A stretch of DNA of 64,000 bases. It comes from Protula sp. h YS-2021 (Eukaryota; Annelida; Polychaeta; Sabellida; Serpulidae). Location of the stretch: assembly GCA_949752745.1 (NCBI GenBank), contig OX457026.1:47749256-47813255 (forward strand), given 5' to 3'. The notes under the pieces are model-generated. The model worked only from the letters and a program-made list of their open reading frames with translations, was not told where the DNA came from and ran no database searches. Both the position numbers and the translations under genes were made by a program. Below, in pieces: positions 31,767-53,333 of the stretch (its first letter is position 1; every line of letters begins with the position of its first letter).

Positions 31767-31783
31767 CTCGTTTAACAGTCAGA

Positions 31784-32184: not shown

Positions 32185-32185
32185 T

Positions 32186-32563: not shown

Positions 32564-32610
32564 GCTTCAATGTTCACACCTCAAATAACTCTTACGTTGG
32601 AGGACCTCCC

Positions 32611-32620
32611 CTTTTTATAC
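32611..32620 (-). promoter_or_regulatory. TATA box overlapping polymerase stop codon
   Basis: On the minus strand GTATAAAAAGG contains the TAA stop (32,617-32,615) of the DNA polymerase gene and lies about 50 bp upstream of the PC4 gene ATG. The counterpart at 63,822-63,831 is built the same way. Confidence 0.75.
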
Positions 32621-35600
32621 CACAGCCTTGTAATGTCCATGCGCTAAGGTGGAATAGCCATCATTCAGCACATATCGCTTCTCGTCATATGGGGAGAGGG
32701 CTACTTTCCTCATCTTCTCTGAAAAAAGCTGGTGACTATGACTTCGAATAATATGTCCTGTAGCCATCGTTTGAGTTTTCTTGAACAAACTGTCTTTATA
32801 CTGCACATGTTTAATGCGTCTTTGGCAAGCTCGAGTGATGCCTTTAGTCGTAAGTTTTTCTTTCCCACCATACATCATACTGTACATTTTCGGTCGAAGT
32901 CCAACAAACTCTTCAATGGGAATGCCCGCCGTCTCATCTTTCATTTTCAGAAGCACTTTTTTGTTCACATTGGAATGTAGGAAATGATCTGGCGGATAGT
33001 CACTTGTGTCGAACAGGTCAGCATCTTGCTGCATATCCTTGTAGATATCGCCCGTTTCTATGTCATAACATAGATTGTCGGTGTCGCTGAACAACAACTT
33101 GGCATTGGGATACTTGACCATGATGTAGTTGTAATGAAAGTTGAACATAAGCACTTTGCTGAGGTCGAGAATGCTGAAGCCAACTTGAATGGGTTTATCC
33201 AGAAGCAAATCCGCTTTGCGCAAATGTACCGCAGTCAAATCTTCGTTGAAAATTTTGAATTTGTGGAAAGACGGTTTGGCTACAAGTTTCTTGAACCGCT
33301 TTTCCTTGTGAACAAGTTCAACATTGATTCGCCTTCTCACATTTTTCATGGTTTTGCCAAACACTGAATTGTTCATCAGTTTGAAGAAGTCTTTCTCAAA
33401 TGGGTTCTTGGCCAATTTTCTCTTTTCTGTGTTCAAGGTAATGTATTTTGCCAGCCATTTGCTCTGTTCAAACATGATGACGCGATGTACTTTGGTGACT
33501 TTCAACCCTAGTGAGACGTACTGTTGTAAATTCCTATAAAGCAGTACATATTTCTTCTTGTTAGACAAGTTAGGAATGAGCTTTTCACTAGGTTTGCCTT
33601 TCATGTTCAGATCTTCCAGTAGCTTCTGACTGTACTCTGACAATTCTCCAAATTTGACACATTTCCATTCTGGAGCCACTGGGTAGTGATTATGACGATC
33701 ATGGATTGAATTTGGGTATTCTAAATCCACTTCCAAAATGAATCCAATGTCGTCATCTTCTGCTACATCCATGAAATCGACGGATTCTGGCTTGCTCACC
33801 CATATAAATCCTCTTTGTGACATGCTTTGTGACATGGCCCAGCCATACAAGTTGTTTGCGTCGAGGTACATCAGGTAGTTGTTTGGTAACTCAGAATTGT
33901 AATCTGCTACGCAGGGATTATTTGCTTTCGCATACTTGTGCGCGATCACAGATATTCCTCCAAGTATGCCTTGCTCAACCATTTGGTACATGTCAATGTC
34001 ATCGATCAATTCCAACTTCCCCTTTGTCGCTTTTAACATAGCATCCCACGATGTCCTGGTGCTGTATAGTAGTGAGCAGGATCCAATTCATACGTGTTGA
34101 GACACACTTGACGAAAATGCTCAAACACGTCAGCTAGCAGTAGCACATCTGATTTCAGGTACAGGTCGTGGTATTCACCGAATGTGGTACAGTTGAATGT
34201 CTCCCACACCTTCTGAGCATGTACATAGTCCTCATCGCTAATGTTCTCTTCGCTAAGCTGACTATAAAACTTGTCCTTGGACGGCAGTTGTGTTTCAGCA
34301 AACTTGGATGGTTCGTCCACGTAATCGTAGGGATACACTCCCTTTCTCAGCAGCAAATCTTGTTGGCTGCTATCGCGAATGTGAGAGGCCATGTTGTAAA
34401 AGTTATCTTTCCCTTCTGCCGCAAGGTTGGATACCAACTTCTGTAGAGAGGTACTCATGAACTGAAAGCTGTCTGTAAATTTTAGATTGCTCATGGTGAA
34501 TGCAATATATTTCTCAATGGTGTTTGGAATGACTGTAATCGTTTCATTTTTAAATTTTCCAATTTCCTCCATGATCAAATGGCTGTCATGGCCTCGTAAA
34601 TTGTGGAAAAACACAGGAATGATAAAAGAATCTTTATCCCCCTGCTTATCCTTTCAAAGTCGGAATTGCAAATTGCATTCATTATGTGCAGCTCCGCGGT
34701 ATTTACCATTGATATGGTCATGATCTCTCACACGATCTGCTCCTAGAGGCTCATGACAAATGTAGCAATCAACAGCGTTCTTGATATCCTCTTTGTCTTC
34801 ACGAGTCATCACCATATCCTTTGGCTGCTGTAAACCATGCAAAATACGATCACGTTCATTCACCATATGGTCTAAAAAGGTTTTCACGGCATTATCACCC
34901 CGATACACAACTGGTGCACGTATGTCATACTGGCTGACAACTACATAGGCGAAGCTGTTCGGACGATGATGCTGATACCTGTCTCCTTCCTGCTTTTTCG
35001 TGAAACATTCAAAGTCTGCATAAATCACAAAAGGTGCTCGCTGTTGTTTGGCTCCATTCTTAAACTTGATGAAGGGTTCCTTGGGGAATGATAAACGTTG
35101 TGCTCCATGCTTGCCACACACTTCACGATGCTTGTCTAAAAGATCTTGTCGCTTAAACCCGTGAAGACAGTTGAAACAATAAAATGCTACATGCTGATGG
35201 TTTCATCGATAAGCCATAAGTCTGCTGAAATTCTTGATGAGACAGTAATGTCTTTTCTTGTCATTGCTAATCAAAAGCAAGTTGATTTCCCTCGCACTGG
35301 TGTTTCGACTCAGTTGTATCGGAACAACTACATCTTGTTCATATCCAAACACGTTGATGGACACATCATTTTCCTTTTCAAATTTTGGAATGTCTGTAAT
35401 CGGTGTGGGAAATGTCATGCCTTCCACCTTCAATTCGTTCTCAAATGGTGTGTATTGATTCACACGCTGTGGGTTTCTATTTGTTGAAGGGTGAAGGTAA
35501 GCCAATACGGACCATAAGAAGCATTTGTTGTCGTCATTCTGAATGTTTAACACAGCCTTTGTATTCTTTACTTTCTTCGGTAGTGGAATAAAACTACTCG

Positions 35601-35865
35601 CTTCTAGTGGCGCTGACGTAGCTGTATGCACTTCAATATACAATATGTTATCCAACACCCAGCCAGAACTTTGTCGCTCATGTTCATCAAACTTGGTAAA
35701 CAATTCTTTACAGGCTTCTGGCAAGTCCTTCTCAATATCCGCTGGATTGTATGCTACATATGTTGGACTGCTGATGAAGGCATTATCCACTTGTTCTACC
35801 ATTACACCTTCTGCATTCGCCGTCAGTTTCTTGAAGCGTGCATGCACCACAATATACCATTTCAT
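32615..35865 (-). pseudogene. Protein-primed DNA polymerase B, at least three frameshifts
   Basis: Replicates the linear element from its TIR ends. Pieces in order: 35,865-35,203 (N-terminal, with an OTU/cysteine-protease-like segment NDDNKCFLWSVLAYLHP); 35,200-34,654 (exonuclease motif VIYADFECF and a CYICHEPLG...RDHDHINGKYRG zinc/endonuclease-VII-like motif); 34,650-34,033; and 34,039-32,615 with polymerase motif A YLDANNLYGWAMS, motif B NNSVFGKTMKNV and motif C LLFSDTDNLCYD. Breaks are near 35,200, 34,650 and 34,045. Total about 1,080 codons, normal for Polinton pPolB. The ATG overlaps the zinc-finger gene stop. Confidence 0.95.
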
Positions 35866-36299
35866 GCCATGTTTAACGTTTCTAGCAAATGTCTCTTAAT
35901 CCGATTCTCTTGTTGTCGCATTTCAAGTAGTAAATCCGATCCATCTTCAGGCTCAAACCGCCTTTCCTGTGCATTTGCACCAAGACTCACTCTTCTGCCT
36001 TTGCCTGTCTTTTCTTTCTTTGAAACATGTTCTTCATGAGACACATTTTCCATCTCAGCTGGTATGCATGCATGTGTCTCAAACGCATCCAAAGATGTAA
36101 ATATCTTTGCACATCCACAGCATAGGACTGGATCAGGTCTGTCAACACCATCTTGCGCCGTCTTTCGTCTCTTGGCTTCAATCTGCTCAACAAGCTCTTC
36201 ACGAGCACGTTTCATCCTAGCTGGTTTGCATGTATGTGCTACGAACAATTCCAGAGATGGAAATGTTATATCGCAATCATGACAGTAGACTGTAGCCAT
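35862..36299 (-). CDS. Zinc-finger protein upstream of polymerase
   Basis: Two C2HC-type fingers: CHDCDITFPSLELFVAHTC and CCGCAKIFTSLDAFETHAC, separated by a basic helix (REELVEQIEAKRRK), then a charged C-terminus. An ATG at 36,350 exists but lies only 7 bp from a TATA box (36,357-36,364), so transcripts should start downstream of it; the ATG at 36,299 (MATVYCHDC) is the better start. The stop overlaps the polymerase ATG by 4 nt. It could be a DNA-binding or terminal-protein-like partner; not established. Confidence 0.75.
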   Translation of the reverse strand: MATVYCHDCDITFPSLELFVAHTCKPARMKRAREELVEQIEAKRRKTAQDGVDRPDPVLCCGCAKIFTSLDAFETHACIPAEMENVSHEEHVSKKEKTGKGRRVSLGANAQERRFEPEDGSDLLLEMRQQENRIKRHLLETLNMA

Positions 36300-36356
36300 C
36301 GCTGTTGTTGTTGTTGATAGAACTGAAATGAGGCGAAATACACGTTTCACTCTTCC

Positions 36357-36366
36357 TTTTATACCA
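36357..36366 (-). promoter_or_regulatory. TATA box for zinc-finger/polymerase unit
   Basis: The minus strand reads GGTATAAAAGG, 58 bp upstream of ATG 36,299. The promoter region is duplicated: 36,345-36,430 and 36,427-36,545 share GTTTCACTC, TATGGTGTGTAAC and CAGAATNTATCACT. Confidence 0.7.
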
Positions 36367-36429
36367 CTTTGATGGTATATGGTGTGTAACTTGTTGACTT
36401 AGCAGAATTTATCACTGTTTGAAATGCAT

Positions 36430-36659
36430 GTTTCACTCATGCTTTTATGCTACTTACATGTAATCAAAATATGGTGTGTAACTTTTAAAACTTGTTCAAA
36501 ATTGCTGACTCAGCAGAATGTATCACTGCTTGATATGAATGTCTCACCTATAGTTGTAGAGTTGTACAGCTGCACTGCTGCACAGCAGAGACATCTAGCG
36601 GTGAAGCCAAATAGTATTCATCCGCCAAATGGTATTCATCCGCGAAATAACACAGGATT
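36430..36659. other. Duplicated promoter flank
   Basis: Second copy of the promoter segment, then AAATAGTATTCATCCGCCAA and AAATGGTATTCATCCGCGAA direct repeats (36,609-36,650). No gene. Confidence 0.5.
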
Positions 36660-37247
36660 ACTGTAAACTGAATCAAATGGTGAAATTTTCATGTTAATCG
36701 GTCAAGTATAATGAAAGTTATCTCAATTTTAAGTTAAAATGGAGACATGTTACAAAAATGCATACAGCCACCTGCGCAACTAGCCCATGACTATTTTATA
36801 ACAAAACTCTACATAAAACTGAATCAAATGGTGAAATTTCCATACAAATTGGTCGAGTATAACGAAAGTTATTCCATTTTTTTCACTTTTTGTTTACAAA
36901 GTTTCCAATAATGCTTACAGCCACTTACCACTTACCGATAGGGCTGTCACTGTTGTTGTTGGGGAGTGAGGTGTGCTCATCCCTTATATACCACTCAGAC
37001 CTCGCCAAACAGCTCTTGTTTTCAGCTGACTTGACAAAATGTTGCTCGCCTGGGTGGGGGGGGGGGTGGAGTCGGTACATAGTATGTCCTGGGGGGGGGG
37101 GGGGTCGGTACATAGTATGTCCTAGGGGGGGTCGGTACATAGTTTGTCCTAGGGGGGTCTGTCCCGACTGCCGGCTAGGGGGGTCTGTCCCGACTGCCGG
37201 GGGGTAGAATGACGTCACTGTGGCAGTACCCGCCTTTTCCCCCTACT
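36660..37247 (-). repeat. Polinton terminal inverted repeat, right
   Basis: Inverted partner of 23,464-23,825. It is longer because of extra GGTCGGTACATAGTATGTCC units and G runs at 37,055-37,150 and an insert at about 36,890-37,050. The outer 100 bp (CTGTCCCGACTGCCGGC twice, GTAGAATGACGTCACTGTGG, CCTTTTCCCCCTACT) agree closely with the left end. Confidence 0.93.
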
Positions 37248-38598: not shown

Positions 38599-38604
38599 AT
38601 TCAT
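38599..38604. repeat. 6 bp target-site duplication, left (ATTCAT)
   Basis: ATTCAT precedes AGTAGTTGTATAATGGG; identical ATTCAT follows the opposite end at 53,328-53,333. Confidence 0.93.
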
Positions 38605-39900
38605 AGTAGTTGTATAATGGGAGTCCTAAAACAATATATGATGGGCATACTAAAACAGTGACGTCATGAGTGTTTTAGAACGCCCATGGGCATACTAAAA
38701 CAGTGATGTAATAATGACGTCATAATGACGTCAGAAAGGTGTGGTGGATCAGATTGATAGGTCTGAGCGCGCGCCCGTACCAATGACGTCACAATGACGT
38801 TATAATGACGTCATCATGATGTTATGACGTCATATTGACATCATAATGACGTCATACTAACATAAGACTCTCCTAAGCAGCATAACCCTAACCCTAGGTC
38901 ACCTGTTATTCATCATGACGTCATTAGTCACGTGACTTGTCAGTCACGTGACCTGTCAATCATGTGTCATGTGACTCTAACCCTATATGAGGGATTTTTT
39001 CCCGATTATTAACCTTCCGACCTGAATGGCTCAGTTGGTAGAGCAGAGGACTCGCAAGCGGACCCATAATCTGAAGGTCGCTGGATCGATCCCGCCCTCG
39101 GGCATCACTTTCATATCATATCATGGGGACCCCCCCTCCCTCCCCCCCCGGGTCCTCCATGTGAGGACTTCCACCATCTGTCTATCATACCATGGGGACC
39201 TCCCTAGGACATAATATGTACGGACCCCCCTCCCCGGGTCCTCCATGTGAGGACTTCCATCATCTGTCTATCATACCATGGAGACCCCCCGGGACCCTCC
39301 ATGTGGGGACCCCCCTAGGACATGATTCAGCAGCCCTATAAGAACACATTGTGTGTGGACATGTGTTTCATTCATACTGTGGCTGCTGTTGGATACACAT
39401 GGAAAACAAGTGAAAACATTTGCTCTTGCTGTCATACTGTTGTACTGTTGTACTATTGTGCTATTGTTGGATATTACATGAAGAACAAGTGAAGGATTGG
39501 TTGGAATACACATAGGAGACAAAGTGTAAGATTGGTTATTCTTTGGAAAAGGAAGTGAAAGATTGGTTGGAAACACATAGGAAAGTGACAGATTGACGAG
39601 TCGTGGTAAGTGACTTTTTTTTACTTTTGTAGCTATGTAACATTATGTAACACTATGTAACACTATGTAACATTATGTAACATGTAACTTTGTAACATTA
39701 TGTAACATTATGTAACATTATTGACTCTGTAGCATCATGTAGCATCATGTAGCATCATGTAACATCATATGACACTATGTAGCATCATGTAACACTATGT
39801 AACATCATGTGACACTATGTGACTATGTAACATCATATGGCTTTATTATTATGTTAGGACTATGTACTTGCTATGGGAGCCTAATTAGTCCAACTATTTA
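38605..39900 (+). repeat. Terminal inverted repeat, left, with CRE sites and telomere-like motif
   Basis: Pairs with 52,100-53,327. From the end inward: CCTAAAACAATATATGATGG; about eight TGACGTCA-type palindromes (38,660-38,960); CCCTAACCCTA (38,884-38,895); a tRNA-like block; GGTCCTCCATGTGAGGAC and GACCCCC blocks; GTTGGATACACATGGAAAAC; a long run of ATGTAACATT-type decamers (39,635-39,830); and TTATGTTAGGACTATGTA. The left copy has about 90 bp (tRNA A-box half) missing from the right copy. Confidence 0.9.
39020..39106 (+). tRNA. tRNA-like sequence in the TIR, probably a pseudogene
   Basis: A box TGGCTCAGTTGG with a GCTC/GAGC D stem, and a B box-like GGATCGATCCC, are spaced as in tRNAs. The anticodon region is abnormal: it reads GACTCGCAAGCGGACCCATAATC, about 13 nt too long, as if two anticodon arms (CGC and CAT) were fused or an intron remained. 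Acceptor ends (GACCTGA / TCGGGC) pair poorly. A polymerase III promoter may survive. The right TIR keeps only the 3' two thirds (52,922-52,984). Confidence 0.5.
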
Positions 39901-39930
39901 TGTCATTCTTAGATGCTTCAATAGCCCTGC

Positions 39931-40003
39931 GTCTGTAGCTCACTTGGAAGAGTACAGGACTCGTAAGCAGAAGATTGGTGGTTCGATCCCGGCCCAGGAC
40001 AAA
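39931..40003 (+). tRNA. Second tRNA-like pseudogene (SINE-type)
   Basis: A box TAGCTCACTTGG and a perfect-looking B box GGTTCGATCCC, with GACTCGTAAGC between. Acceptor ends do not pair well. It resembles the head of a tRNA-derived SINE or a decayed tRNA. Confidence 0.5.
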
Positions 40004-40309
40004 CTTTTTTGGTTTTTTTTTGTTTACTTTTGTGACTAAGTAACATCATGTAACATCATGTGACATCATGTGACTGTGACATTATGTGACATTAGGTAAC
40101 ATTATGTGACTCTGTGACATCATGTGACACTATATGACATCATGTGACACTTTGTAACACCATGTGACTTTTTTTGACATTATGTGTCTCCGTGCCATGT
40201 GACTCTGTGACATCATTTTTATAAACATAGTAACTATATTTCTATAGTGGTTCTATTACAGTACAGTAACCACACACACACACACACAGCATAGGAATAA
40301 GTACATGAA
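40004..40309. repeat. GTGACATCATGTAACATC-type decamer repeat
   Basis: Degenerate repeats of GTAACATCAT/GTGACATTAT, a continuation of the TIR decamer run, followed by a (CA)n tract at about 40,273-40,289. Confidence 0.7.
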
Positions 40310-40480
40310 AGGTCTCAGAGTGTGAGAAAACGATCGATAAATTCCAGAGTGCACTACTTCAGAGCGTCGGGAACCGATCGATAAATTTTAGAGTGCACTC
40401 GTTCAGAGCGTGGGAAACCGATCGAGAAATTTCAGAGTGCACTAGTTCAGAGCGTGGAACGATCAATAAATTTGAGAAGG
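40310..40480. repeat. Tandem repeat, 3-4 units of about 55 bp
   Basis: Units carry AGAGTGCACT, TTCAGAGCGT, GGAACCGATCGATAAATT. Non-coding. Confidence 0.8.
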
Positions 40481-40509
40481 AATGGGATTTTCTCTACGTT
40501 AAGTCTAAT

Positions 40510-40830
40510 GTTATGTTTTATGTTATAGTAGTGGGAAAATGGTACTTCTAAAGCGCATTTAACAAATGCAGTTTTGGAAAACAGATAATGTATAAAATAA
40601 GTCTAAACATTTTAACATACAACTTATTCAAATGTTTTGAAGTTATAGTAGTAGGAAAATGGTAGTTCTAGATCAACTTTAATAAATTTAGTTTTTGCTA
40701 ACATATGATGTATAAAATAAGTTTGAACATTTTAGCATGCCACTTATTCGAATGTTCTAAAGTTATAGTAGTGGCAAAAAAATGGTGGTTCTAGACCAAC
40801 TTTAACAAATTTAGTTTTTGACAAGCGCCA
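40510..40830. repeat. Tandem repeat, three units of about 120 bp
   Basis: Units start GTTATAGTAGTGGGAAAATGG and continue TAGTTTTTGNNAAC, TATGATGTATAAAATAAGT, AACATTTTAGCATNCNACTT. They begin near 40,525, 40,643 and 40,762. Confidence 0.8.
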
Positions 40831-40879
40831 TTCGAAACATGTGTTTAATTTATTGTTGGAACATATTACGTCATAGTAT

Positions 40880-40985
40880 TGTTCAGCAATTTTTGAACAA
40901 GTTCAACAAATTGTTCAACAAGTTCAACATGTTCAACATGTTCAAAATGTTCAACATGTTCAGAAAGTTGTTGTTCAACAAGTTG
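40880..40985. repeat. GTTCAACAT repeat before the zinc-finger gene
   Basis: Repeated TTGAACAAGTTCAACAAATT and ATGTTCAACATGTTCAAAAT. An inverted counterpart (TGTTGAACATGTTGAAC) lies at 51,785-51,880 before the PC4-like gene. It may be a shared promoter element of the two genes. Confidence 0.65.
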
Positions 40986-40993
40986 TATATAAA
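40986..40993 (+). promoter_or_regulatory. TATA box (TATATAAA)
   Basis: Lies 52 bp before ATG 41,046 and directly after the GTTCAAC repeat. Confidence 0.6.
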
Positions 40994-41045
40994 GCTATGT
41001 TTAAAGACTTCTCATCATTTGAATAGTGTAAGTTGAACTGAAAGG

Positions 41046-41591
41046 ATGTATAAATGTAACATTTGTTCGACATCTTACAATTGGCCACAAAGTCTTAAAA
41101 GACACTTAAAGGTTGCTCACACTTCAGAAGTGGATGAAGAATCAGATATGGAAAACCCTGTAAAACTACCTTTCACGGAAACTTTAGATGAGTCTTCTAT
41201 GGAAAGTCAAAGCGTCAACATAGCTGAAAAGAATGCACATGCTTGTACAGAATGTGGTGCATTATACAACAGCGAAGAAGCTTTGCTCAAACATATGGAG
41301 ACGTGTGGTAAGGATGTTGATGACAGGAGTTCTGAAAGTGGGTCAGAAACAGACTCTGAAAGTGAGTCAGAAATAGACTCTGTTTGGCATGATATGGCTC
41401 AAGAAGTCTACGATGACTATGATGACAAATTTCAAGAAAAGGTTTTAGAATATGAAGAACAAGGACTTGAAGATGCGCGTGAAATAGCAAGTTATGACCT
41501 TCGACCCATTTATAAGCATGGAATAAAACAACTGTTTATCAGACTGTTCAACTATACCCAGCGTCTAGAACAAAGCCAACATTATCAATGA
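41046..41591 (+). CDS. C2H2 zinc-finger protein of the non-autonomous element
   Basis: 181 residues. Finger 1 is YKCNICSTSYNWPQSLKRHL...H (classical C2H2); finger 2 is HACTECGALYNSEEALLKHM...C (C2HC). Then an acidic Ser/Glu-rich linker (~residues 95-115) and a conserved-looking block (SVWHDMAQEVYDDYDDKFQE, KHGIKQLFIRLFNYTQ). I recall zinc-finger genes of this layout, with two N-terminal fingers and an acidic middle, in animal Polintons. The stop overlaps ATG 41,588 of the following frame (ATGA), so the two may be one gene split by a one-base change or translationally coupled. Likely a DNA-binding regulator. Confidence 0.75.
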   Translation: MYKCNICSTSYNWPQSLKRHLKVAHTSEVDEESDMENPVKLPFTETLDESSMESQSVNIAEKNAHACTECGALYNSEEALLKHMETCGKDVDDRSSESGSETDSESESEIDSVWHDMAQEVYDDYDDKFQEKVLEYEEQGLEDAREIASYDLRPIYKHGIKQLFIRLFNYTQRLEQSQHYQ

Positions 41592-41785
41592 TTTTAGAGG
41601 ACTTTAATTTCTTTGTTGATGAAAAACATTATAAGTATTCAAAGGCACTAAAGGCGGCTATAAGGAAAAACAATGCATTCTTTGAAGAACTACTAAATAT
41701 GGAGGAGGAGGAGGATGGTAGCAGTGACGAAGAAAGTGGCATGGACAGTGAGGTGCAACAGAGTGAAACAGATGCAGAAGAATAG
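41588..41785 (+). CDS. Acidic small protein or C-terminal part of the zinc-finger gene
   Basis: 65 residues: DEKHYKYSKALKAAIRKNNA, FFEELLNM, then a Glu/Asp/Ser tail. It overlaps the previous stop by 4 nt. AATAAA lies 20 bp after its stop (about 41,805), so it is the end of the transcription unit. Confidence 0.65.
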   Translation: MILEDFNFFVDEKHYKYSKALKAAIRKNNAFFEELLNMEEEEDGSSDEESGMDSEVQQSETDAEE

Positions 41786-42238
41786 TCTTAATTAACTCAA
41801 CTTTATAATAAAGACTTTGTAAATGTAACATTTTATTAACTTAAGCGTTGCGTATTAATATATGTCTTGCTTTACAACATATGAAGTCGCGAGAGGCTAA
41901 GGCCCCTGGTGCGGTGTGAATTCACCCGTAGACCATATATCATGTATTGTGCATTATAATTAATTTTGTATTATTATGTATTATATTCAAGTATTGTATC
42001 ATCATGTATCATATTCAAGTATTTTATTATTTCCACTTGGCATTGAAAATGCCAAATGGAGATGGATTGCCTCGAATTCTTCACCTATTTTTTTTTCATC
42101 CCTTTTTTTAATTTTTTTTCTTTTTCCGCCGAATCGGTTTCCAGACATCTCCTCCGAGACCACTGAAGCTAGACCAACCAAACTTGGCACCTATATGGAG
42201 GGTCATCTGAAGTGGTGCACCTGATAAAAATTTTTGAC
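41786..42238. repeat. 3' UTR and reverse-oriented repeat tail before the satellite
   Basis: AATAAA at about 41,805. TATCAT/GTATTAT repeats (41,930-42,020). A hairpin CTTGGCATTGAAAATGCCAA (42,036-42,055). TCTCCTCCGAGACC...CAAACTTGGCACC is related, in reverse, to the tail of the 3.3/8.6 kb repeat (GGTCTCGGAGG, GTGCCAAGTTTC). The segment 42,139-42,250 is repeated directly at 50,655-50,765 on the far side of the satellite. Confidence 0.65.
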
Positions 42239-45200
42239 CTTGACCTTACTTTGACTTCGAGCCCCAAACCGGAAGTTGGCCCTTATCTCGAAAACGGTAA
42301 GAGAGAGAGCAATTTTGACAAAATATTCGACCTCCACCCCCTATACGACGATACGTAAGGTATAACTTCCGGTGTCCTTGACCTCCAGGTCACTTTCGAG
42401 CCCCAAACCGGAAGTTGGCCCTTATCCCGAAAACGGTAAGAGATAGAGCAATTTTGACCTCATTTTCGACCTCCACCCCCGATACGACGATACGTAAGGT
42501 ATAACTTTCAGTGTCCTTGACCTCCAGGTCACTTTCGAGCCACAAAAAGGAAGTTGGCCCTTATCTCGAAAATGGTACGAGATAGAGCAATTTTGACCTC
42601 ATTTTCGACCTCCACCCCCGATACGACGATACGTAAGGTATAACTTCCGGTGTCCTTGACCTCCAGGTCACTTTCGAGCCATAAACCGGAAGTTCGCCCT
42701 TATCTCGAAAGCGGTAAGAGATAGAGCAATTTTGACCTCATTTTCGACCTCCACCCCCTATACGACGACGCGAAAGGTATAACTTCCGGTGTCCTTGACC
42801 TCCAGGTCACTTTCGAGCCCCAAACTGGAAGTTGGCCCTTATCTCGAAAACGGTACGAGATAGAGCAATTTTGACCTCATTTTCGACCTCCACCCCCGAT
42901 ACGACGGTACGTAAGGTATAACTTCCGGTGTCCTTGACCTCCAGGTCACTTTCGAGCCATACACCGGATGTTGGCCCTTATCTCGAAAACGGTAAGAGAT
43001 AGAGCAATTTTGACCTCATTTTCGACCTCCACCCCCTATACGACGATACGTAAGGTATAACTTCCGGTGTTCTGGACCTCCAGGTCACTTTCGAGCCCCA
43101 AACCGGAAGTTGGCCCTTATCCCGAAAACGGTAAGAGATAGAGCAATTCTTGCCTCATTTTCGACCTCCACCAACTATAGGACGATACGCAAGGTATAAC
43201 CTCCGGTGTCCTTGACCTCCAGGTCACTTTCGAGCCACAAAAAGGAAGTTGGCCCTTATCTCGAAAATGGTACGAGATAGAGCAATTTTGACCTCATTTT
43301 CGACCTCCACCCCCGATACGACGATACGTAAGGTATAACTTCCGGTGTCCTTGACCTCCAGGTCACTTTCGAGCCATAAACCGGAAGTTCGCCCTTATCT
43401 CGAAAGCGGTAAGAGATAGAGCAATTTTGACCTCATTTTCGACCTCCACCCCCTATACGACGACGCGCAAGGTATAACTTCCGGTGTCCTTGACCTCCAG
43501 GTCACTTTCGAGCCCCAAACTGGAAGTTGGCCCTTATCTCGAAAACGGTACGAGATAGAGCAATTTTGACCTCATTTTCGACCTCCACCCCCTATACGAC
43601 GATACGTAAGGTATAACTTCCGGTGTTCTGGACCTCCAGGTCACTTTCGAGCCCCAAACCGGAAGTTGGCCCTTATCCCGAAAACGGTAAGAGATAGAGC
43701 AATTCTTGCCTCATTTTCGACCTCCACCAACTATAGGACGATACGCAAGGTATAACCTCCGGTGTGCTTGACCTCCAGGTCACTTTCGAGCCCCAAACCG
43801 GAAGCTGGCCCTTATCTCGAAAACGGTAAGAGACAGAGCAATTTTGACCTCATTTTCGACCTCCACCCCCTATACGACGATACGAAAGGTATAACTTCCG
43901 GTGTCCTTGACCTCCAGGTCACTATCCAGCCATAAACCGGTAGTTGGCCCTTATCTCGAAAACGGTAAGAGATAGAGCAATTGTGACCTCATTTTCGACC
44001 TCCATCCCCTATTCGACGATACGTAAGGGATAACTTCCGGTGTCCTTGACCTCCAGGTCACTTTCGAGCCCCAAACTGGAAGTTGGCCCTTATCTCGAAA
44101 ATGGTACGAGATAGAGCAATTCTGACCTCAATTTCGACCTCCACCCCCTATACGACGATACGCAAGGTATAACTTCCGGTGTCTTTGACCTCAAGGTCAC
44201 TTTCGAGCACCAAAGCGGAAGTTGGCCCTTATCTCGAAAACGGTAAGAGATAGAGCAATTCTGACGTCATTTTCGACCTCCACCCCTTATACGACGATAC
44301 GTAAGGTATAACCTCCGGTGTCCTTGACCTCCAGGTCACTTTCGAGTCCCAAACCGGAAGCTGGCCCTTATCTCGAAAACGGTACGATATAGAGCAACTC
44401 TGACCTCATTTTCGACCTCCACCCCCTATACGACGATACGTAAGGTATAACTTTCAGTGTCCTTGACCTCCAGGTCACTTTCGAGCCACAAAAAGGAAGT
44501 TGGCCCTTATCTCGAAAATGGTACGAGATAGAGCAATTTTGACCTCATTTTCGACCTCCACCCCCTATACGACGATACGTAAGGTATAACTTCCGGTGTC
44601 CTTGACCTCCAGGTCACTTTCGAGCCCCAAACTGGAAGTTGGCCCTTATCTCGAAAACGGTACGAGATAGAGCAATTTTGACCTCATTTTCGACCTCCAC
44701 CCCCGATACGACGATACGTAAGGTATAACTTCCGGTGTCCTTGACCTCCAGGTCACTTTCGAGCCATAAACCGGATGTTGGCCCTTATCTCGAAAACGGT
44801 AAGAGATAGAGCAATTTTGACCTCATTTTCGACCTCCACCCCCTATACGACGATACGTAAGGTATAACTTCCGGTGTTCTCGACCTCCAGGTCACTTTCG
44901 AGCCCCAAACCGGAAGTTGGCCCTTATCCCGAAAACGGTAAGAGATAGAGCAATTCTTGCCTCATTTTCGACCTCCACCAACTATAGGACGATACGCAAG
45001 GTATAACCTCCGGTGTGCTTGACCTCCAGGTCACTTTCGAGCCCCAAACCGGAAGCTGGCCCTTATCTCGAAAACGGTAAGAGACAGAGCAATTTTGACC
45101 TCATTTTCGACCTCCACCCCATATACGACGATACGAAAGGTATAACTTCCGGTGTCCTTGACTTCCAGGTCACTTTCCAGCCATAAACCGGTAGTTGGCC

Positions 45201-48200
45201 CTTATCTCGAAAACGGTAAGAGATAGAGCAATTGTGACCTCATTTTCGACCTCCATCCCCTATGCGACGATACGTAAGGTATAACTTCCGGTGTCCTTGA
45301 CCTCCAGGTCACTTTCGAGCCCCAAACTGGAAGTTGGCCCTTATCTCGAAAATGGTACGAGATAGAGCAATTCTGACCTCAATTTCGACCTCCACCCCCT
45401 ATACGACGATACGCAAGGTATAACTTCCGGTGTCTTTGACCTCAAGGTCACTTTCGAGCACCAAAGCGGAAGTTGGCCCTTATCTCGAAAACGGTAAGAG
45501 ATAGAGCAATTCTGACGTCATTTTCGACCTCCACCCCTTATACGACGATACGTAAGGTATAACCTCCGGTGTCCTTGACCTCCAGGTCACTTTCGAGTCC
45601 CAAACCGGAAGCTGGCCCTTATCTCGAAAACGGTACGATATAGAGCAACTCTGACCTCATTTTCGACCTCCACCCCCTATACGACGATACGTAAGGTATA
45701 ACTTTCAGTGTCCTTGACCTCCAGGTCACTTTCGAGCCACAAAAAGGAAGTTGGCCCTTATCTCGAAAATGGTACGAGATAGAGCAATTTTGACCTCATT
45801 TTCGACCTCCACCCCCTATACGACGATACGTAAGGTATAACTTCCGGTGTCCTTGACCTCCAGGTCACTTTCGAGCCCCAAACTGGAAGTTGGCCCTTAT
45901 CTCGAAAACGGTACGAGATAGAGCAATTTTGACCTCATTTTCGACCTCCACCCCCGATACGACGATACGTAAGGTATAACTTCCGGTGTGATTGACCTCC
46001 AGGTCACTTTCGAGCCATAAACCGGATGTTGGCCCTTATCTCGAAAACGGTAAGAGATAGAGCAATTTTGACCTCATTTTCGACCTCCACCCCCTATACG
46101 ACGATACGTAAGGTATAACTTCCGGTGTTCTCGACCTCCAGGTCACTTTCGAGCCCCAAACCGGAAGTTGGCCCTTATCCCGAAAACGGTAAGAGATAGA
46201 GCAATTCTTGCCTCATTTTCGACCTCCACCAACTATAGGACGATACGCAAGGTATAACCTCCGGTGTGCTTGACCTCCAGGTCACTTTCGAGCCCCAAAC
46301 CGGAAGCTGGCCCTTATCTCGAAAACGGTAAGAGACAGAGCAATTTTGACCTCATTTTCGACCTCCACCCCATATACGACGATACGAAAGGTATAACTTC
46401 CGGTGTCCTTGACTTCCAGGTCACTTTCCAGCCATAAACCGGTAGTTGGCCCTTATCTCGAAAACGGTAAGAGATAGAGCAATTGTGACCTCATTTTCGA
46501 CCTCCATCCCCTATGCGACGATACGTAAGGTATAACTTCCGGTGTCCTTGACCTCCAGGTCACTTTCGAGCCCCAAACTGGAAGTTGGCCCTTATCTCGA
46601 AAATGGTACGAGATAGAGCAATTCTGACCTCATTTTCGACCTCCACCCCCTATACGACGATACGCAAGGTATAACTTCCGGTGTCTTTGACCTCCAGGTC
46701 ACTTTCGAGCACCAAAGCGGAAGTTGGCCCTTATCTCGAAAACGGTAAGAGATAGAGCAATTCTGACGTCCTTTTCGACCTCCACCCCTTATACGACGAT
46801 ACGTAAGGTATAACCTCCGGTGTCCTTGACCTCCAGGTCACTTTCGAGTCCCAAACCGGAAGCTGGCCCTTATCTCGAAAACGGTACGATATAGAGCAAT
46901 TCTGACCTCATTTTCGACCTCCACCCCCTATACGACGATACGTAAGGTATAACTTTCAGTGTCCTTGACCTCCAGGTCACTTTCGAGACACAAAAAGGTA
47001 GTTGGCCCTTATCTCGAAAATGGTACGAGATAGAGCAATTTTGACCTCATTTTCGACCTCTACCTCCGATAGGACGATACGTAAGGTATAACTTCCGGTG
47101 TCCTTGACCTCCAGGTCTCTTTCGAGCCATAAACCGGAAGTTCGCCCTTATCTCGAAAACGGTAAGAGATAGAGCAATTTTGACCTCATTTTCGACCTCC
47201 ACCCCCTATACGACGATACGTAAGGTATAACTTCCGGTGTCCTTGACCTCCAGGTCACTTTCGAGCCCCAAACTGGAAGTTGGCCCTTATCTCGAAAACG
47301 GTACGAGATAGAGCAATTTTGACCTAATTTTCGACCTCCATCCCCTATTCGACGATACGTAAGGTATAACTTCCGGTGTCCTTGACCTCCAGGTCACTTT
47401 CGAACCCCAAACTGGAACTTGGCCCTTATCTCGAAAATGGTACGAGATAGAGCAATTCTGACCTCATTTTCGACCTCCACCCCCTATACGACGATACGCA
47501 AGGTATAACTTCCGGTGTCTTTGACCTCCAGGTCACTTTCGAGCACCAAAGCGGAAGTTGGCCCTTATCTCGAAAACGGTAAGAGATAGAGCAATTCTGA
47601 CGTCATTTTCGACCTCCACCCCTTATACGACGATACGTAAGGTATAACCTCCGGTGTCCTTGACCTCCAGGTCACTTTCGAGTCCCAAACCGGAAGTTGG
47701 CCCTTATCTCGAAAACGGTAAGAGAGAGAGCAATTGTGACCTCATTTTCGACCTCCATCCCCTATTCGACGATACGTAAGGTATAACTTCCGGTGTCCTT
47801 GACCTCCAGGTCACTTTCGAGCCCAAAACTGGAAGTTGGCCCTTATCTCGAAAATGGTACGAGATAGAGCAATTCTGACCTCATTTTCGACCTCCACCCC
47901 CTATACGACGATACGTAAGGAATAACTTCCGGTGTCCTTGACCTCCAGGTCACTTTCCAGCCATAAACCGGATGTTGGCCCTTATCTCGAAAACGGTAAG
48001 AGATAGAGCAATTTTGACCTCATTTTAGACCTCCACCCCTTATACGACGATACGTAAGGTATTAATTCCGGTGTCCTTGACCTCCAGGTCACTTTCGAGT
48101 CCCAAACTTGAAGTTGGCCCTTATCTCGAAAACGGTAAGAGATAGAGCAATTCTTGCCTCATTTTCGACCTCCAACAACTATAGGACGATACGCAAGGTA

Positions 48201-50650
48201 TAACCTCCGGTGTCCTTGACCTCCAGGTCACTTTCGAGTCCCAAACCGGAAGCTGGCCCTTATCTCGAAAACGGTAAGAGACAGAGCAATTTTGACCATA
48301 TTTTCGACCTCCACCCCCTATACGACGATACGTAAGGTATAACTTCCGGTGTCCTTGACCTCCAGGTCACCTTCGAGCCCCAAACCGGAAGTTGGCCCTT
48401 ATCTCGAAAACGGTAAGAGACAGAACAATTTTGACCATATATTCGACCTCCACCCCCTATACGACGATACGTAAGGTATAACTTCCGGTGTCCTGGACCT
48501 CCAGGTCATTTTCGAGCCCCAAACCGGAAGTTGGCCCTTATCCCGAAAACGGCAAGAGACAGAGCAATTTTGACCTCATTTTCGACCTCCACCCCCGATA
48601 CGACGATACGTAAGGTATAACTTCCAGTGTCCTTGACCTCCAGGTCACTTTCGAGCCCCAAACTGGAAGTTGGCCCTTATCTCGAAAACGGTACGAGATA
48701 GAGTAATTTTGACCTCAATTTCGACCTCCACCCCTTATACGACGATACGTAAGGTATTACTTCGGGTGTCCTTGACCTCCAGGTCACTTTCGAGCCCCAA
48801 ACTTGAAGTTGGCCCTTATTTTGAAAACGGTAAGAGATAGAGCAATTCTTGCCTCATTTTCGACCTCCACCAACTATACGACGATACGCAAGGTATAACC
48901 TCCGGTGTCCTTGACCTCCAGGTCACTTTCGAACCCCAAACCGGAAGTTGGCCCTTATCTCGAAAACGGTAAGAGATAGAGCAATTTTGACCTCCTTTTC
49001 GACCTCAACCCCCTATACGACGATACGTAAGGTATAACTTCCGGTGTCCTTGACCTCCAGGTCACTATCCAGCCATAAACCGGTAGTTGGCCCTTATCTC
49101 GAAAACGGTAAGAGATAGAGCAATTGTGACCTCATTTTCGACCTCCATCCCCTATTCGACGATACGTAAGGTATAACTTCCGGTGTCCTTGACCTCCAGG
49201 TCACTTTCGAGCCCCAAACTGGAAGTTGGCCCTTATCTCGAAAATGGTACGAGATAGAGCAATTCTGACCTCATTTTCGACCTCCACCCCCTATACGACG
49301 ATACGCAAGGTATAACTTCCGGTGTCTTTGACCTCCAGGTCACTTTCGAGCACCAAAGCGGAAGTTGGCCCTTATCTCGAAAACGGTAAGAGATAGAGCA
49401 ATTTTGACGTCATTTTCGACCTCCACCCCCTATACGACGATACGTAAGGTATCACTTCCGGTGTCCTTGACCTCCAGGTCACTTTCGAGCCCCAAAGCGG
49501 AAGATGGTCCTTATCTCGAAAACGGTAAGAGATATAGCAATTTTGACGACATTTTCGACCTCCACCCCCTATACGATGATACGTAAGGTATAACTTCCGA
49601 TGTCCTTGACCTCCAGGTCACTTTCGAGCCCCAAAGCGGAAGTTGGTCCTTATCTCGAAAACGGTAAGAGATATAGCAATTTTGACGACATTTTCGACCT
49701 CCACCCCCTATACGATGATACGTAAGGTATAACTTCCGGTGTCCTTGACCTCCAGGTCACTTTCGAGCCATAAACCGGAAGTTGGCCCTTATCTCGAAAA
49801 CGGTAAGAGCTAGAGCAATTTTGACCTCATTTTCGACCTCCACCCCTTATACGACGATGCGTATGGTATAACTTCCGGTGTCCTTGACCTCCAGGTCACT
49901 TTCGAGCCCCAAAGCGGAAGTTGGCCCTTATCTCGAAAACGGTAAGCGATAGAGCAATTCTTGCCTCATTTTCGACCTCCACCCCCTATACGATACGCAA
50001 GGTATAACCTCCGGTGTCCTTGACCTCCAGGTCACTTTCGAGCCCCAAACCGTAAGCTGGCCCTTATCTCGAAAACGGTAAGAGATATAGCAATTTTGAC
50101 CTCATTTTCGACCTCCAACCCCGATACGACGATACGTAAGGTATAACTTCCGGTGTCCTTGACCTCCAGGTCACTTTCGAGCCATAAACCGGAAGTTGGC
50201 CCTTATCTCGAAAACGGTAAGAGATAGAGCAATTTTGACCTCATTTTAGACCTCCATCCCCTATACGATGATACGTAAGGTATAACTTCCGATGTCCTTG
50301 ACCTCCAGGTCACTTTCGAGCCCCAAACTGGAAGTTGGCCCCTATCTCGAAAACGGTACGAGATAGAGCAATTTTGACCTCATTTTCGACCTCCACCCCC
50401 TATACGACGATACGCAAGGTATAACTTCCGGTGTCCTTGACCTCCAGGTCACTTTCGAGCCCCAAAGCGGAAGTTGGCCCTTATCTCGAAAACGGTAAGA
50501 GATAGAGCAATTTTGACCTCATTTTCGACCTCCACCCCCTATACGACGATACGTAAGGTATAACTTCCGGTGTCCTTGACCTCCAGGTCACTTTCGAGCC
50601 CCAAAGCGGAAGTTGGGCCTTATCTCGAAAACGGTAAGAGAAATAGCAAT
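42239..50650. repeat. Satellite array: about 60 copies of a 139 bp unit with 1,251 bp higher-order repeat
   Basis: The landmark CCTTGACCTCCAGGTCAC starts at 42,376, 42,515 and 42,654, giving 139 bp spacing. The consensus unit carries GAAGTTGGCCCTTATCTCGA, AACGGTAAGAGATAGAGCAA, TTTTGACCTCATTTTCGACC, CACCCCCTATACGACGATAC and GTAAGGTATAACTTCCGGTG. The marker CTGACGTC occurs at 44,261, 45,512 and 46,763, exactly 1,251 bp (nine units) apart, and again at 47,597 (six units later). Nine-unit blocks were therefore amplified as a whole. Frames inside the array are by-products and not genes. Confidence 0.97.
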
Positions 50651-50654
50651 CATT

Positions 50655-51100
50655 TTCCAGACATCTCCTCCAAGACCGTTCAAGCTAGACCAGCCAAACT
50701 TGGTACATGAATAGAGGTCATCCGAGGTGGTACACCCGATAAAAATTGTTTACCTTGACCTTACCGGTATAGTATTTAGGAGGATATTCTACATTCAGAT
50801 ATGTGAAAATTGTTAACAAATAGCAATATCATCTACGTTCCGTTTTAAGTTATCATTCCAAGTGGGTCTAATTAGCTGTGCGAATTTTGGTCTAGTTATG
50901 TATTATATCCAATTATTGTAGGAGAAAAATAAATAAATTTAAAAGCATCATATGTGTTTCTTTTATTAAATATTACAAATATTTACAATTATGATAAAAA
51001 CAAAACTATTTCAATTACATATTATGCTAATACATGTACCTACTCATAAGAACTAAAATTGATAAGTTTACAAATGTTATAAAATCTGACTTTACATCAA
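50655..51100. other. Right flank of the satellite and 3' region of PC4-like gene
   Basis: 50,655-50,765 repeats 42,139-42,250 directly (TCTCCTCCAAGACC, CAAACTTGGTAC). A minus-strand AATAAA (complement of TTTATT at 50,962-50,967) could end the PC4-like transcript. Confidence 0.55.
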
Positions 51101-51350
51101 CATAGATAATGTTAATTCATTTCATAGTCATGCTGTTAAAATTGTATACAGTCGCATATGACTTTCTACTCAATCATCTTCTGACAGTCACTACATTTAT
51201 ACACATCCATTTTCTGAAGCATGAGATCCACTGATGTCATTTGCTTCTTCAGCATGTGCCAGTCTTTCAATGACAACAAAATTCCCTTCTTGGTAGGATA
51301 TAACCTCCCAGATGCATGATTCGTAACATATTTACGAATGTTAACCATCA
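51060..51350 (-). repeat. Inverted duplication, left arm
   Basis: Mirror of 51,866-52,105. Covers the 3' half and 3' flank of the PC4-like gene (ACATTATCTATGTTGATGTA, GTTAAAATTGTATACAGTCG). Confidence 0.85.
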
Positions 51351-51714
51351 CTTTCTGTTGATATTTCACCAATTTAATATATGTTTCCCCATTAATGGGT
51401 ATCATAACCAGTGAATCGTCTAAGCGCATCTTCTTCATGGTGGTATCAGCTTTACGCTCCGGTTCTCGCTTCATATTAGGCTCTGTCTTAATTTTTCGCA
51501 TTTTACACGGCACCGTCTTAGCTGGTAACTCATCTCGTTTTATCTTTCTAAAATGTGGTCGCTTTTGACGCTGCTGACGTGACTTCACCTTGGACTTTAC
51601 CATAGACATTGCCTTAGACTTTGCTGTAGGTATTGTCTCAGGCTTTGTTATAAAATGTTCTGCAGGCATTGTCATAGATGGTAGTTGTTGTTCACTCACT
51701 GCAGACATGTTCAC
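51166..51714 (-). CDS. PC4-like protein of the non-autonomous element
   Basis: 182 residues. A long basic N-terminal tail (KSKVKSRQQRQKRPHFRKIK, NMKREPERK) precedes a PC4 domain at about residues 100-165: LVMIPINGETYIKLVKYQQK, VMVNIRKYVTNHASGR, YPTKKGILLSLKDWHMLKKQ. It ends with one CxxC (YKCSDCQKMIE), a half zinc site. Same family as the minus-strand genes of both Polintons. PC4/Sub1 binds single-stranded DNA and assists transcription; here it may serve element expression or replication. Intact frame. The 3' half is duplicated in inverse orientation at 51.87-52.1 kb. Confidence 0.8.
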   Translation of the reverse strand: MNMSAVSEQQLPSMTMPAEHFITKPETIPTAKSKAMSMVKSKVKSRQQRQKRPHFRKIKRDELPAKTVPCKMRKIKTEPNMKREPERKADTTMKKMRLDDSLVMIPINGETYIKLVKYQQKVMVNIRKYVTNHASGRLYPTKKGILLSLKDWHMLKKQMTSVDLMLQKMDVYKCSDCQKMIE

Positions 51715-51865
51715 TCTTCAGTATCTTGATACAGAATGTGCGTTATGTCTGAGGGCAGGTACATTTAATGCTCTATAGTGAGTTGTCTTAATATGTTGAA
51801 CAACAACTTGTTGAACATGTTGAACAAATTGTTGAACAACAACTTGCTGAACATGTTGAACGTTG

Positions 51866-52105
51866 TTGTTGTTAACATTCGTAAATACATTACGAATCAT
51901 GCATCTGGGAGGTTATATCCTACCAAGAATGCGAATTTTGTTGTCATTGAAAGACTGGCAAATGCTGAAGAAGCAAATGACGTCAGTGGATCTCATGCTT
52001 CAGAGTAGAAAGTCATATGCGACTGTATACAATTTTAACAGCATGACTATGAAATGAATTAACATTATCTATGTTGATGTAAAGTCAGATTTTATAATAC
52101 ATTTT
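51866..52105 (+). pseudogene. Inverted partial copy of the PC4-like gene
   Basis: Reads on plus VVNIRKYITNHASGRLYPTK and then, in another frame, LLSLKDWQMLKKQMTSVDLM, with a short deletion before the end (the CxxC tail is gone). The arms 51,060-51,350 and 51,866-52,105 are complementary, with a loop of about 500 bp. Confidence 0.85.
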
Positions 52106-53327
52106 ATAATACATTGCTAATTGCTCCAATAGCAATTATATAGTCCTAACATAAAAATATAGCGATTTGTTACATAGCCACATAGTGTCACATGATGTTA
52201 CATAGTGTCACATAATGTTACATAGTGCCACATGATGTTACATGATGTTACAGTCACATAATGTCACATAATGTCACATAATGTTACATAATGTTACATA
52301 ATGTTACATAATGTTACAGAGTTACATAATGTTACATAATGTTACATAGTGTTACATAATGTTACACAGTTACAAAAGTTAAAAGAAGTCACTTACCACG
52401 ACTCTTTTTCCAATTCGTCTCCATGTGTATTCCAGTCAATCTGTCACTTTCCTATGTGTTTCCAGCCAATCTTTCACTTCCTTTTCCAAAGAATAACCAA
52501 TCTTACACTTTGTCTCCTATGTGTATTCCAACCAATCCTTCACTTGTTCTTCATGTAATATCCAACAATAGCACAATAGTACAACAGTACAACAGTATAT
52601 CAGCAAGAGCAACTGTTTTCACTTGTTTTCCATGTGTATCCAACAGCAGCCACAGTATGAACGAAACACATGTCCGCACACAATGTGTTCTTATAGGGCT
52701 GCTGAATCATGTCCTAGGGGGGTCCCTACATGGAGGACCCCGGAGGGTCCCCATGGTATGATAGACAGATGGTGCAGGTCCTCAGCTGGAGGACCCGGGG
52801 AGGGGGGTCCGTACATATTATGTCCTAAGGGGGTCCCCATGGTATGATAGACAGATGGTGGAAGTCCTCACAAGGAGAACTCGGGGGAGGGAGGGGCTCC
52901 CCAAGATATGATACGAAAGTGATGCCCGAGGGCGGGATCGATCCACCGACCTTCAGATCATTGGTCCGCTTGCGAGTCCTCTGACAAGTCACGTGGCTAA
53001 TGACGTCATGATGAATAACAGGTGAACTAGGGTTAGGGTTATACTGCTTAGGAGAGTCTTACGTTAGTATGACGTCATTATGATGTCTATATGACGTCAT
53101 AACGTCATAACATCATGATGACGTCATTATAACGTCATTATGACGTCATTGGCGCGGGCGCGCGCTCAGATCTATCAATCTGATCCACCACACCTTTCTG
53201 ACGTCATTATGACGTCATTATTACATCACTGTTTTAGTATGCTCATGGGCGTTCTAAAACATTCTTGACGTCACTGTTTTAGTATGCCCATCATATATTG
53301 TTTTAGGACGCCCATTATACAACTACT
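52106..53327 (-). repeat. Terminal inverted repeat, right
   Basis: Mirror of 38,605-39,900, in the order ATAGTCCTAACATAA, TGTTACATAATGTTACATAG runs, GTGTATCCAACAGCAGCC, GGACCCCC blocks, truncated tRNA-like block, AGGGTTAGGGTTA, TGACGTCA cluster, GCCCATCATATATTG and terminal CAACTACT. Confidence 0.9.
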
Positions 53328-53333
53328 ATTCAT
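53328..53333. repeat. 6 bp target-site duplication, right (ATTCAT)
   Basis: Directly follows the terminal ACT and equals 38,599-38,604. Confidence 0.93.

What the first reader, a model, noticed from the sequence alone, without database searches (positions are those of the whole stretch)
38605..53327. Giant non-autonomous Polinton-type element carrying a satellite array
A 14.7 kb element with AGT...ACT ends, 1.2 kb TIRs and the TSD ATTCAT has none of the Polinton enzymes or capsid genes, only a zinc-finger gene, a PC4-like gene and 8.4 kb of satellite. Non-autonomous Polintons of this size with a higher-order satellite cargo are, to my knowledge, not a described class. They could spread satellite seeds through a genome.
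Basis: partly seen in the sequence, partly recalled or inferred. Interest (0 to 1): 0.92.

Follow-up and report, generated by a model that had tools for sequence, protein, structure and literature searches.

The report
Satellite-carrying transposon nested inside Polinton relative
The satellite array is the cargo of one jumping element that landed inside another: the outer one is a two-gene, enzyme-less relative of the virus-like Polinton transposons whose zinc-finger gene sits in at least 150 places of this genome, and it is likely moved by enzymes borrowed from fuller Polintons.

Summary
In detail: 38605-53327 has AGTAGT...ACTACT ends, TIRs of about 1.2-1.3 kb, TSD ATTCAT, a C2H2 and a PC4 gene, and a 60-copy, 139-bp satellite. 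One genome search (40 of 2956 candidates scored) gave 13 further paired-TIR copies; in the 9 whose ends I could place there is a 6-bp TSD (6 exact, one ambiguous in register, two 5/6). In 8 other copies where the junction beside the zinc-finger gene is visible, no satellite lies there. The satellite block, 42032-50895, is itself a mobile element: both ends recur genome-wide with fixed boundaries (40 scored matches each, window included), and three complete short copies (0.88-1.09 kb) carry about 2-3 of the same monomers. It has Helentron/HINE hallmarks. Without it the outer element is 5.9 kb, not giant. The outer family is the part worth following: its zinc-finger gene was found at 150 of 150 scored places with at least 90% identity, 135 without stops; some copies are palindromic; 149 of 150 scored places of a Polinton ATPase gene are stop-free and could mark enzyme sources. 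Mobilisation in trans is inferred, not shown.

The parts
38599..38604 (.). left target-site duplication ATTCAT of the outer element
   Evidence: sequence
38605..39888 (+). left terminal inverted repeat (AGTAGT end) of the outer, Polinton-type element
39889..42031 (+). left interior of the outer element, holding the zinc-finger gene; conserved in other copies
41046..41591 (+). C2H2 zinc-finger gene (181 aa, shortened in this copy)
42032..50895 (+). nested Helentron/HINE-type element (8,864 bp) carrying the satellite
42032..42060 (+). 5' end of the nested element: subterminal inverted repeat plus inverted repeat able to form a hairpin
42256..50650 (+). 139-bp satellite array, 60.4 monomers: central repeats of the nested element
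50651..50895 (+). 3' end module of the nested element: 3' subterminal inverted repeat (CCAAGTGGG) and a degenerate palindrome, ending GGTCTAG
50896..52116 (+). right interior of the outer element, holding the PC4 gene and a partial inverted duplicate of it (51871-52104)
51166..51708 (-). PC4-domain gene (180 aa)
52117..53327 (-). right terminal inverted repeat (ACTACT end)
53328..53333 (.). right target-site duplication ATTCAT
   Evidence: sequence
23464..37247 (.). resident Polinton (13.8 kb, AGTAG...CTACT ends, TSD CATTTA) with integrase and ATPase genes: the kind of element likely to supply enzymes in trans; not part of the finding itself

Best explanation
It is one transposon nested in another: an 8.86-kb satellite-bearing element of Helentron/HINE type (42032-50895), whose two ends recur with fixed boundaries elsewhere in the genome, interrupts the spacer between the two genes of a 5.9-kb non-autonomous element with Polinton-type ends, which is likely mobilised by the polymerase and integrase of fuller Polintons. 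Shown: the ends and 6-bp TSDs of the outer family, its two genes in other copies, the satellite-free junction in other copies, the separate genome-wide distribution of the nested element's ends, and short complete copies of it with the same monomers. Inferred: that the nested element was placed by rolling-circle (Helentron) enzymes, that its array grew to 60 monomers by unequal exchange or replication slippage, and that the outer element is copied and integrated in trans. I further infer that the zinc-finger and PC4 proteins bind the element's own DNA (duplex ends and displaced single strands) and help its replication or transcription; this is a guess from domain type.
For: Outer element: AGTAGT...ACTACT and ATTCAT TSD, matching the (AGT)2//(ACT)2 ends and perfect 6-bp TSDs described for vertebrate Mavericks (PMC8097293, passages). 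One TIR search gave 66 matches (40 of 2956 candidates scored), pairing into this element and 13 others. TSDs in the 9 of those 13 with ends placed: exact in L031, L032, L033 (there a simple ATA repeat), L042, L045 and L035/L037; 7 shared bases in L034; 5 of 6 in L041 and L043. PC4 is 43% identical over 84 aa to the resident Polinton's PC4. A homologue of the zinc-finger protein from another source, P0004, is joined in one frame to a Polinton-type packaging ATPase, 43% identical over 189 columns to the window's (Adeno_IVa2 match just above cut-off). Nested element: left end, the 40 full-length matches (window included) start at query base 1 or 2; right end, 39 of 40 (window included) end at query base 245 and one at 244; complete copies L051 (931 bp), L052 (1,088 bp), L057 (880 bp) with the same monomers and T-rich flanks. 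In L059 and L060 the similarity to the outer element's left part stops at window 42031 and to its right part begins at 50896. Trans source: 150 of 150 scored ATPase places are at least 96% identical to the resident Polinton's, 149 without stops (150 of 6898 candidates scored); that Polinton has an integrase core (PF00665, E 2.1e-10) and a frame with a sub-threshold DNA_pol_B_2 match (E 2.2e-5, 24.0 bits against a cut-off of 25.8).
Against: No Rep/helicase Helentron partner was looked for. The 3' stem-loop is poor in the window copy itself (z -0.92) and in L057 (z 0.15), better in L051 and L052 (z -2.26, -3.13); the 5' hairpin scores z -2.71 in the window and -1.65 in L051. Of 8 left-end copies fetched, only 3 show a right end within the stretch, and one (L058) carries monomers of the other satellite type, that of window 7174-7746. 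The resident Polinton's main presumed polymerase frame (32618-34039) has no Pfam match and nothing convincing in PDB or PHROGs; I call it polymerase from recalled motifs. No Polinton with the same terminal 17 bases or with this zinc-finger gene was found in this genome; by eye none of the 150 scored ATPase places lies within 10 kb of the 150 scored zinc-finger places. Four of 13 paired copies (L038, L039, L040, L044) had ends I could not place, so their TSDs are untested. dN/dS among copies is only weakly below 1 for the zinc finger (0.41-0.98 with one 1.24) and mixed for PC4 (0.31-2.00). No reads were available to exclude an assembly error in the array length.
Confidence: 0.9

Rival explanations
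1. One reading: the satellite is integral cargo of a giant non-autonomous Polinton class, which spreads satellite seeds.
For: The array does lie between intact TIRs with a TSD.
Against: None of 8 other copies with a visible junction has an array there; the array's flanks are a separate mobile family with its own ends.
Confidence: 0.05
2. The outer element belongs to another DNA transposon superfamily that happens to have AGT...ACT ends and a 6-bp TSD, and captured Polinton genes.
For: No integrase or polymerase was found in it, so its enzyme source is not shown.
Against: Ends and TSD both match Polinton rules; its PC4 has a homologue in resident Polintons and its zinc finger a homologue joined to a Polinton-type ATPase; AGTAG ends are shared with two long Polintons of this genome, the one at 23464-37247 and the one inside the 22-kb copy.
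Confidence: 0.07
3. The satellite block was not inserted by a Helentron-type element but arose as a plain satellite seeded by recombination, with the flanking modules carried along.
For: The array is long (60 monomers), about 92% within itself, and related arrays occur elsewhere, e.g. 7174-7746 at about 69%. Direct repeats 42132-42249 and 50648-50764 flank it.
Against: Both outer boundaries coincide with the ends of a dispersed family whose short complete copies have the same order of modules.
Confidence: 0.06

Closest known systems
HINE / non-autonomous Helentron with satellite-like central repeats (Cg_HINE of the Pacific oyster, PMC7492417; DINE-1, PMC4067079; passages read)
   Same: 5' subTIR with a nearby inverted repeat, 3' subTIR with palindrome, central tandem repeats, insertion at T-rich TT sites; an array of 89 monomers is reported for mobile-element-associated CgiSat01 (PMC8268682, passage)
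   Different: Different monomer sequence and length (139 bp); this copy sits inside a Polinton-type element and has a long array; no Helentron partner tested here.
Polinton/Maverick
   Same: AGTAGT...ACTACT ends, 6-bp TSD, long TIRs, PC4 homologue, zinc-finger homologue joined to a Polinton-type ATPase in a protein from another source
   Different: None of 17 non-PC4 Polinton ORFs tested matches it; 5.9 kb of its own DNA; TIRs longer than the 402 bp mean, though within the 46-1,447 bp range, given for vertebrate Mavericks (PMC8097293, passage).
CgiSat52, an oyster satellite with a Polinton match (PMC8268682, table passage)
   Same: A printed link between a satellite and Polinton sequence
   Different: 1,656-bp monomer that matches a Polinton; here the 139-bp satellite belongs to the nested element.
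Defective-interfering or snap-back genomes of protein-primed viruses such as adenoviruses (recalled, not from a call)
   Same: Palindromic copies made of one end and its mirror (L031, L042)
   Different: Here they are integrated in a genome with TSDs; the replication route is inferred only.

Membership tests
Helentron/HINE (inner element 42032-50895) | 5' subterminal inverted repeat with a nearby inverted repeat | tested here: met
   CCACTTGGCATT-GAA-AATGCCAAATGG in the window; hairpin z -2.71; same or one to two bases different in 7 of 8 left-end copies read, more diverged in L058
Helentron/HINE (inner element 42032-50895) | 3' subTIR followed by a palindrome or stem-loop | tested here: met
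   CCAAGTGG plus AATTCGC-TGT-GCGAATT in L051 and L052; degenerate in the window copy and weaker in L057
Helentron/HINE (inner element 42032-50895) | Insertion at TT without target-site duplication | tested here: met
   ATT|...|TTA at the window; TTT or TTTT after GGTCTAG in 3 of 3 complete copies; no longer duplication seen by eye
Helentron/HINE (inner element 42032-50895) | Central tandem repeats between fixed end modules | tested here: met
Helentron/HINE (inner element 42032-50895) | Shares ends with an autonomous Rep/helicase Helentron | not tested
   no search made
Polinton/Maverick (outer element) | 6-bp target-site duplication | tested here: met
   ATTCAT here; 9 of 9 other copies with ends placed: 6 exact, 1 with 7 shared bases, 2 at 5/6; 4 paired copies untested
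Polinton/Maverick (outer element) | (AGT)2//(ACT)2 or similar AG...CT terminal motif and long TIRs | tested here: met
   motif from PMC8097293 (passage)
Polinton/Maverick (outer element) | Protein-primed DNA polymerase B, rve integrase, packaging ATPase, capsid proteins | tested here: not met
   of 19 resident Polinton ORFs (integrase, ATPase and presumed polymerase frames included) only the two PC4 ORFs match the element; capsid genes were not identified in the query set; so it is filed as a non-autonomous element with Polinton-type ends, not as a Polinton
Polinton/Maverick (outer element) | Mobilised by Polinton enzymes | not testable with these tools
   needs a transposition assay

The most novel reading that the evidence does not exclude
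The outer family is a two-gene hyperparasite of Polintons: it keeps only a zinc-finger and a PC4 protein, uses Polinton polymerase and integrase, has reached at least 150 gene places in one genome, and its palindromic members are integrated snap-back genomes that record protein-primed replication of Polinton-type DNA in the host germ line.
Probability: 0.35. Interest if true: 0.75.

Novelty: new variant of a known kind. Interest (0 to 1): 0.45.

Why it matters
It removes a supposed new class (satellite-carrying giant Polintons) and replaces it with a clean nesting of two elements, the inner one of a known kind. What remains new to me is an abundant, gene-bearing but enzyme-less Polinton-type family with mostly open zinc-finger genes (135 of 150 scored places without stops) in a genome with at least 149 stop-free places of a near-identical Polinton ATPase gene. 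It would let one ask directly how non-autonomous Polinton relatives are maintained, and whether their palindromic copies are traces of Polinton replication.

Tried and rejected
Rejected: satellite as Polinton cargo. tRNA-like stretches in the TIR: ARAGORN found none in the window, Rfam none in the window at gathering threshold, and in 38605-42250 five matches, all far below their gathering scores. Viral contigs: no confirmed relative of the PC4 or zinc-finger protein (3 scans of 8). PC4 protein search: 8 candidates, none at E 0.001. Structure of the zinc-finger protein: mean pLDDT 63.7, a confident helical stretch at about 109-192; Foldseek against PDB gave 189 matches at E up to 10 and 0 at E 0.001. 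dN/dS gave weak, mixed signals; the second script stopped with a division by zero and only its first 7 lines are used. Presumed polymerase frame of the resident Polinton: no Pfam family, no convincing PDB or PHROGs match; its upstream neighbour matches DNA_pol_B_2 just below cut-off.

Literature (7 of 10 searches): Polinton + satellite DNA + non-autonomous, 14 papers; Polinton + tandem repeats + terminal inverted repeats + mollus, 6; at least 3 of Maverick, Polinton, nonautonomous, satellite, 75 of which 20 listed; none with any of six 'nonautonomous Polinton/Maverick' phrases, Polinton+PC4 or Polinton+PC4+zinc finger+integrase; one with Helentron+Polinton+nested. Passages, not whole texts, were read in PMC8268682, PMC6431247, PMC7492417, PMC8097293, PMC10294476 and PMC4067079; the others were seen as listings. 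In those passages I saw no satellite-bearing element nested in a Polinton. The library holds open-licence PMC papers only.
Full report
1. The observation. It begins AGTAGTTGTATAATGGG at 38605, ends with the inverse (one base different in the first 18) at 53327, and is flanked by ATTCAT on both sides. The TIRs align at 94% over 347 and 88% over 881 columns, with about 100 bp only in the left arm. It holds a C2H2 zinc-finger ORF (PF00096), a PC4 ORF (PF02229) and a 139-bp satellite of 60.4 copies. Of 19 ORF translations picked from the two Polinton stretches in the window, only the two PC4 proteins match it. The claimed higher-order structure is slight: 93.6% identity at a lag of nine monomers against 91.1% at a lag of one.

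2. Other copies. The window lies in an 863-Mb assembly of 218 contigs. One search with the first 496 bases of the left TIR gave 66 matches, with 40 of 2956 candidates scored, so counts are lower bounds. Facing pairs define this element and 13 others: twelve of 0.67 to 8.3 kb, and one of 22 kb. Ends could be placed in 9 of the 13 (L031, L032, L033, L034, L035/L037, L041, L042, L043, L045), and each has a TSD: exact 6 bp in six (in L033 a simple ATA repeat), seven shared bases in L034, five of six in L041 and L043. Ends of L038, L039, L040 and L044 could not be placed. The 22-kb copy is long because a Polinton of about 16 kb, with its own ends AGTAGGGTAGAAAG and TSD AGTACA, sits in its right arm; that insert matches the integrase, ATPase, PC4 and presumed polymerase ORFs of the window Polinton.

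3. What the family normally contains. In 8 copies where the junction is visible (L034, L035, L040, L043, L046, L048 twice, L059, L060) the zinc-finger region and the PC4-side spacer lie next to each other with no satellite between them; PC4 itself is partial in L040 and L046 and not matched in L035. L059 and L060 were taken from the zinc-finger search as typical hits; each carries open zinc-finger (244, 245 aa) and PC4 (180 aa) frames in convergent order. No match to the 139-bp satellite was found between the paired TIRs of the 13 copies (BLAST, E 1e-10). In L038 and L044 a related satellite abuts the TIR matches on both sides; since their ends are not placed, 'outside' is likely but not certain. 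L060 starts inside a monomer of such a satellite.

4. The satellite block is another transposon. In L059 and L060 the similarity to the outer element's left part stops at window 42031 and to its right part begins at 50896; L043, L048 and L034 show the same spacer uninterrupted. Searching the genome with 42032-42255 gave 86 matches with 40 of 1986 candidates scored: 40 full-length ones (window included) that start at query base 1 or 2, and 46 partial ones to the inner part. Searching with 50651-50895 gave 47 matches with 40 of 2217 scored: 40 full ones (window included) that end at query base 245 (39) or 244 (1), and 7 partial ones. Of 8 left-end copies fetched, L051, L052 and L057 are complete (931, 1,088 and 880 bp) with about two to three monomers of the same satellite; L053 has at least six full monomers and runs off the stretch; L054-L056 carry monomers of it without a right end in the stretch; L058 carries the type of window 7174-7746. 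The ends have a 5' subterminal repeat with an adjoining inverted repeat, a 3' subterminal repeat followed by a stem (clear in L051 and L052, poor in the window copy and L057), and T-rich flanks. These are the hallmarks given for HINEs and Helentrons in PMC4067079 and PMC7492417 (passages). A mobile-element-associated array of 89 monomers is reported for an oyster satellite in PMC8268682 (passage). The window array is therefore long but within a described range.

5. Array history. Monomers in the window array average 92.1% identity (90.7%, where a non-monomer end piece is included), those in L053 98.8%; 54 of 60 window monomers have their closest relative inside the array, but only 12 outside monomers were available for comparison. 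This fits growth in place after arrival, then decay, but does not prove it.

6. Relation to Polintons. (AGT)2//(ACT)2 ends with perfect 6-bp TSDs are stated for vertebrate Mavericks in PMC8097293 (passages). The element's PC4 is 43% identical over 84 aa to that of the Polinton at 23464-37247. The zinc-finger protein has five homologues at E 0.001 in the protein collection; one, P0004, is a 451-aa frame whose first part is a Polinton-type ATPase, 43% identical over 189 columns to the window's. So both genes have Polinton relatives, yet the zinc finger matched no other ORF of 60 aa or more in the window at E 1e-4. The resident Polinton has an integrase core and a frame with a DNA_pol_B_2 match just below its cut-off; its larger presumed polymerase frame is named from recalled motifs and has no Pfam match.

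7. Abundance and state. The zinc-finger protein search scored 150 of 5803 candidates; all 150 are at least 90% identical and 135 have no stop. These are the best 150, the window included, so the sample is biased to intact ones, and mirror-image copies count twice. In the same list I count by eye 10 pairs in opposite orientation within about 7 kb of each other, plus a head-to-tail run of four on contig 3. The resident Polinton's ATPase search scored 150 of 6898; all are at least 96% identical and 149 have no stop. Polintons with an open ATPase gene are thus common here and could supply enzymes; that they do so is inferred.

8. Palindromes. L031 (3,487 bp) and L042 (675 bp) match their own reverse complement end to end at 89% and 82%; L045 has arms of about 255 bp around an unpaired centre. 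L048 has both gene regions in mirror order. Turn-back synthesis on a linear, protein-primed template would make such molecules; I recall this from adenovirus work and did not test it. Ordinary inverted duplication remains possible, and the 11-18% difference between arms means that, if made by turn-back, these copies are not recent.

9. Verdict. The enzyme-less, two-gene Polinton-type family is the part worth following.

Noticed in passing
window 23464-37247: A Polinton of 13.8 kb with ends AGTAGGGGG...CCCCCTACT and TSD CATTTA, holding integrase, ATPase, PC4 and presumed polymerase frames.
   Followed up: partly
window about 58000-64000: Part of a second Polinton, about 79-84% identical to the first in places, cut by the window end (PC4 63404-63775).
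   Followed up: no
window 7174-7746: A short array of a 139-bp satellite about 69% identical to the nested one, outside both elements; related arrays abut copies L038, L044 and L060 of the outer family, and HINE copy L058 carries this type.
   Followed up: partly
L031, L042, L045, L048: Palindromic or mirror-image copies of the outer family; L042 and L045 consist of little but terminal sequence and carry exact 6-bp TSDs.
   Followed up: partly
L034 6115-8357: Five tandem 449-bp units at 99% identity made from part of the right TIR.
   Followed up: no
G000 contig 3, 90631492-90641382: Four zinc-finger gene copies head to tail at about 3.1-kb spacing.
   Followed up: no
window 39019-39105 and 39930-40000: Stretches that look tRNA-like by eye but were found neither by ARAGORN nor by Rfam.
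   Followed up: partly
L035 from about 5710 through L036 to L037 about 5316: A Polinton of about 16 kb (TSD AGTACA) inserted in the right arm of an outer-family copy.
   Followed up: partly
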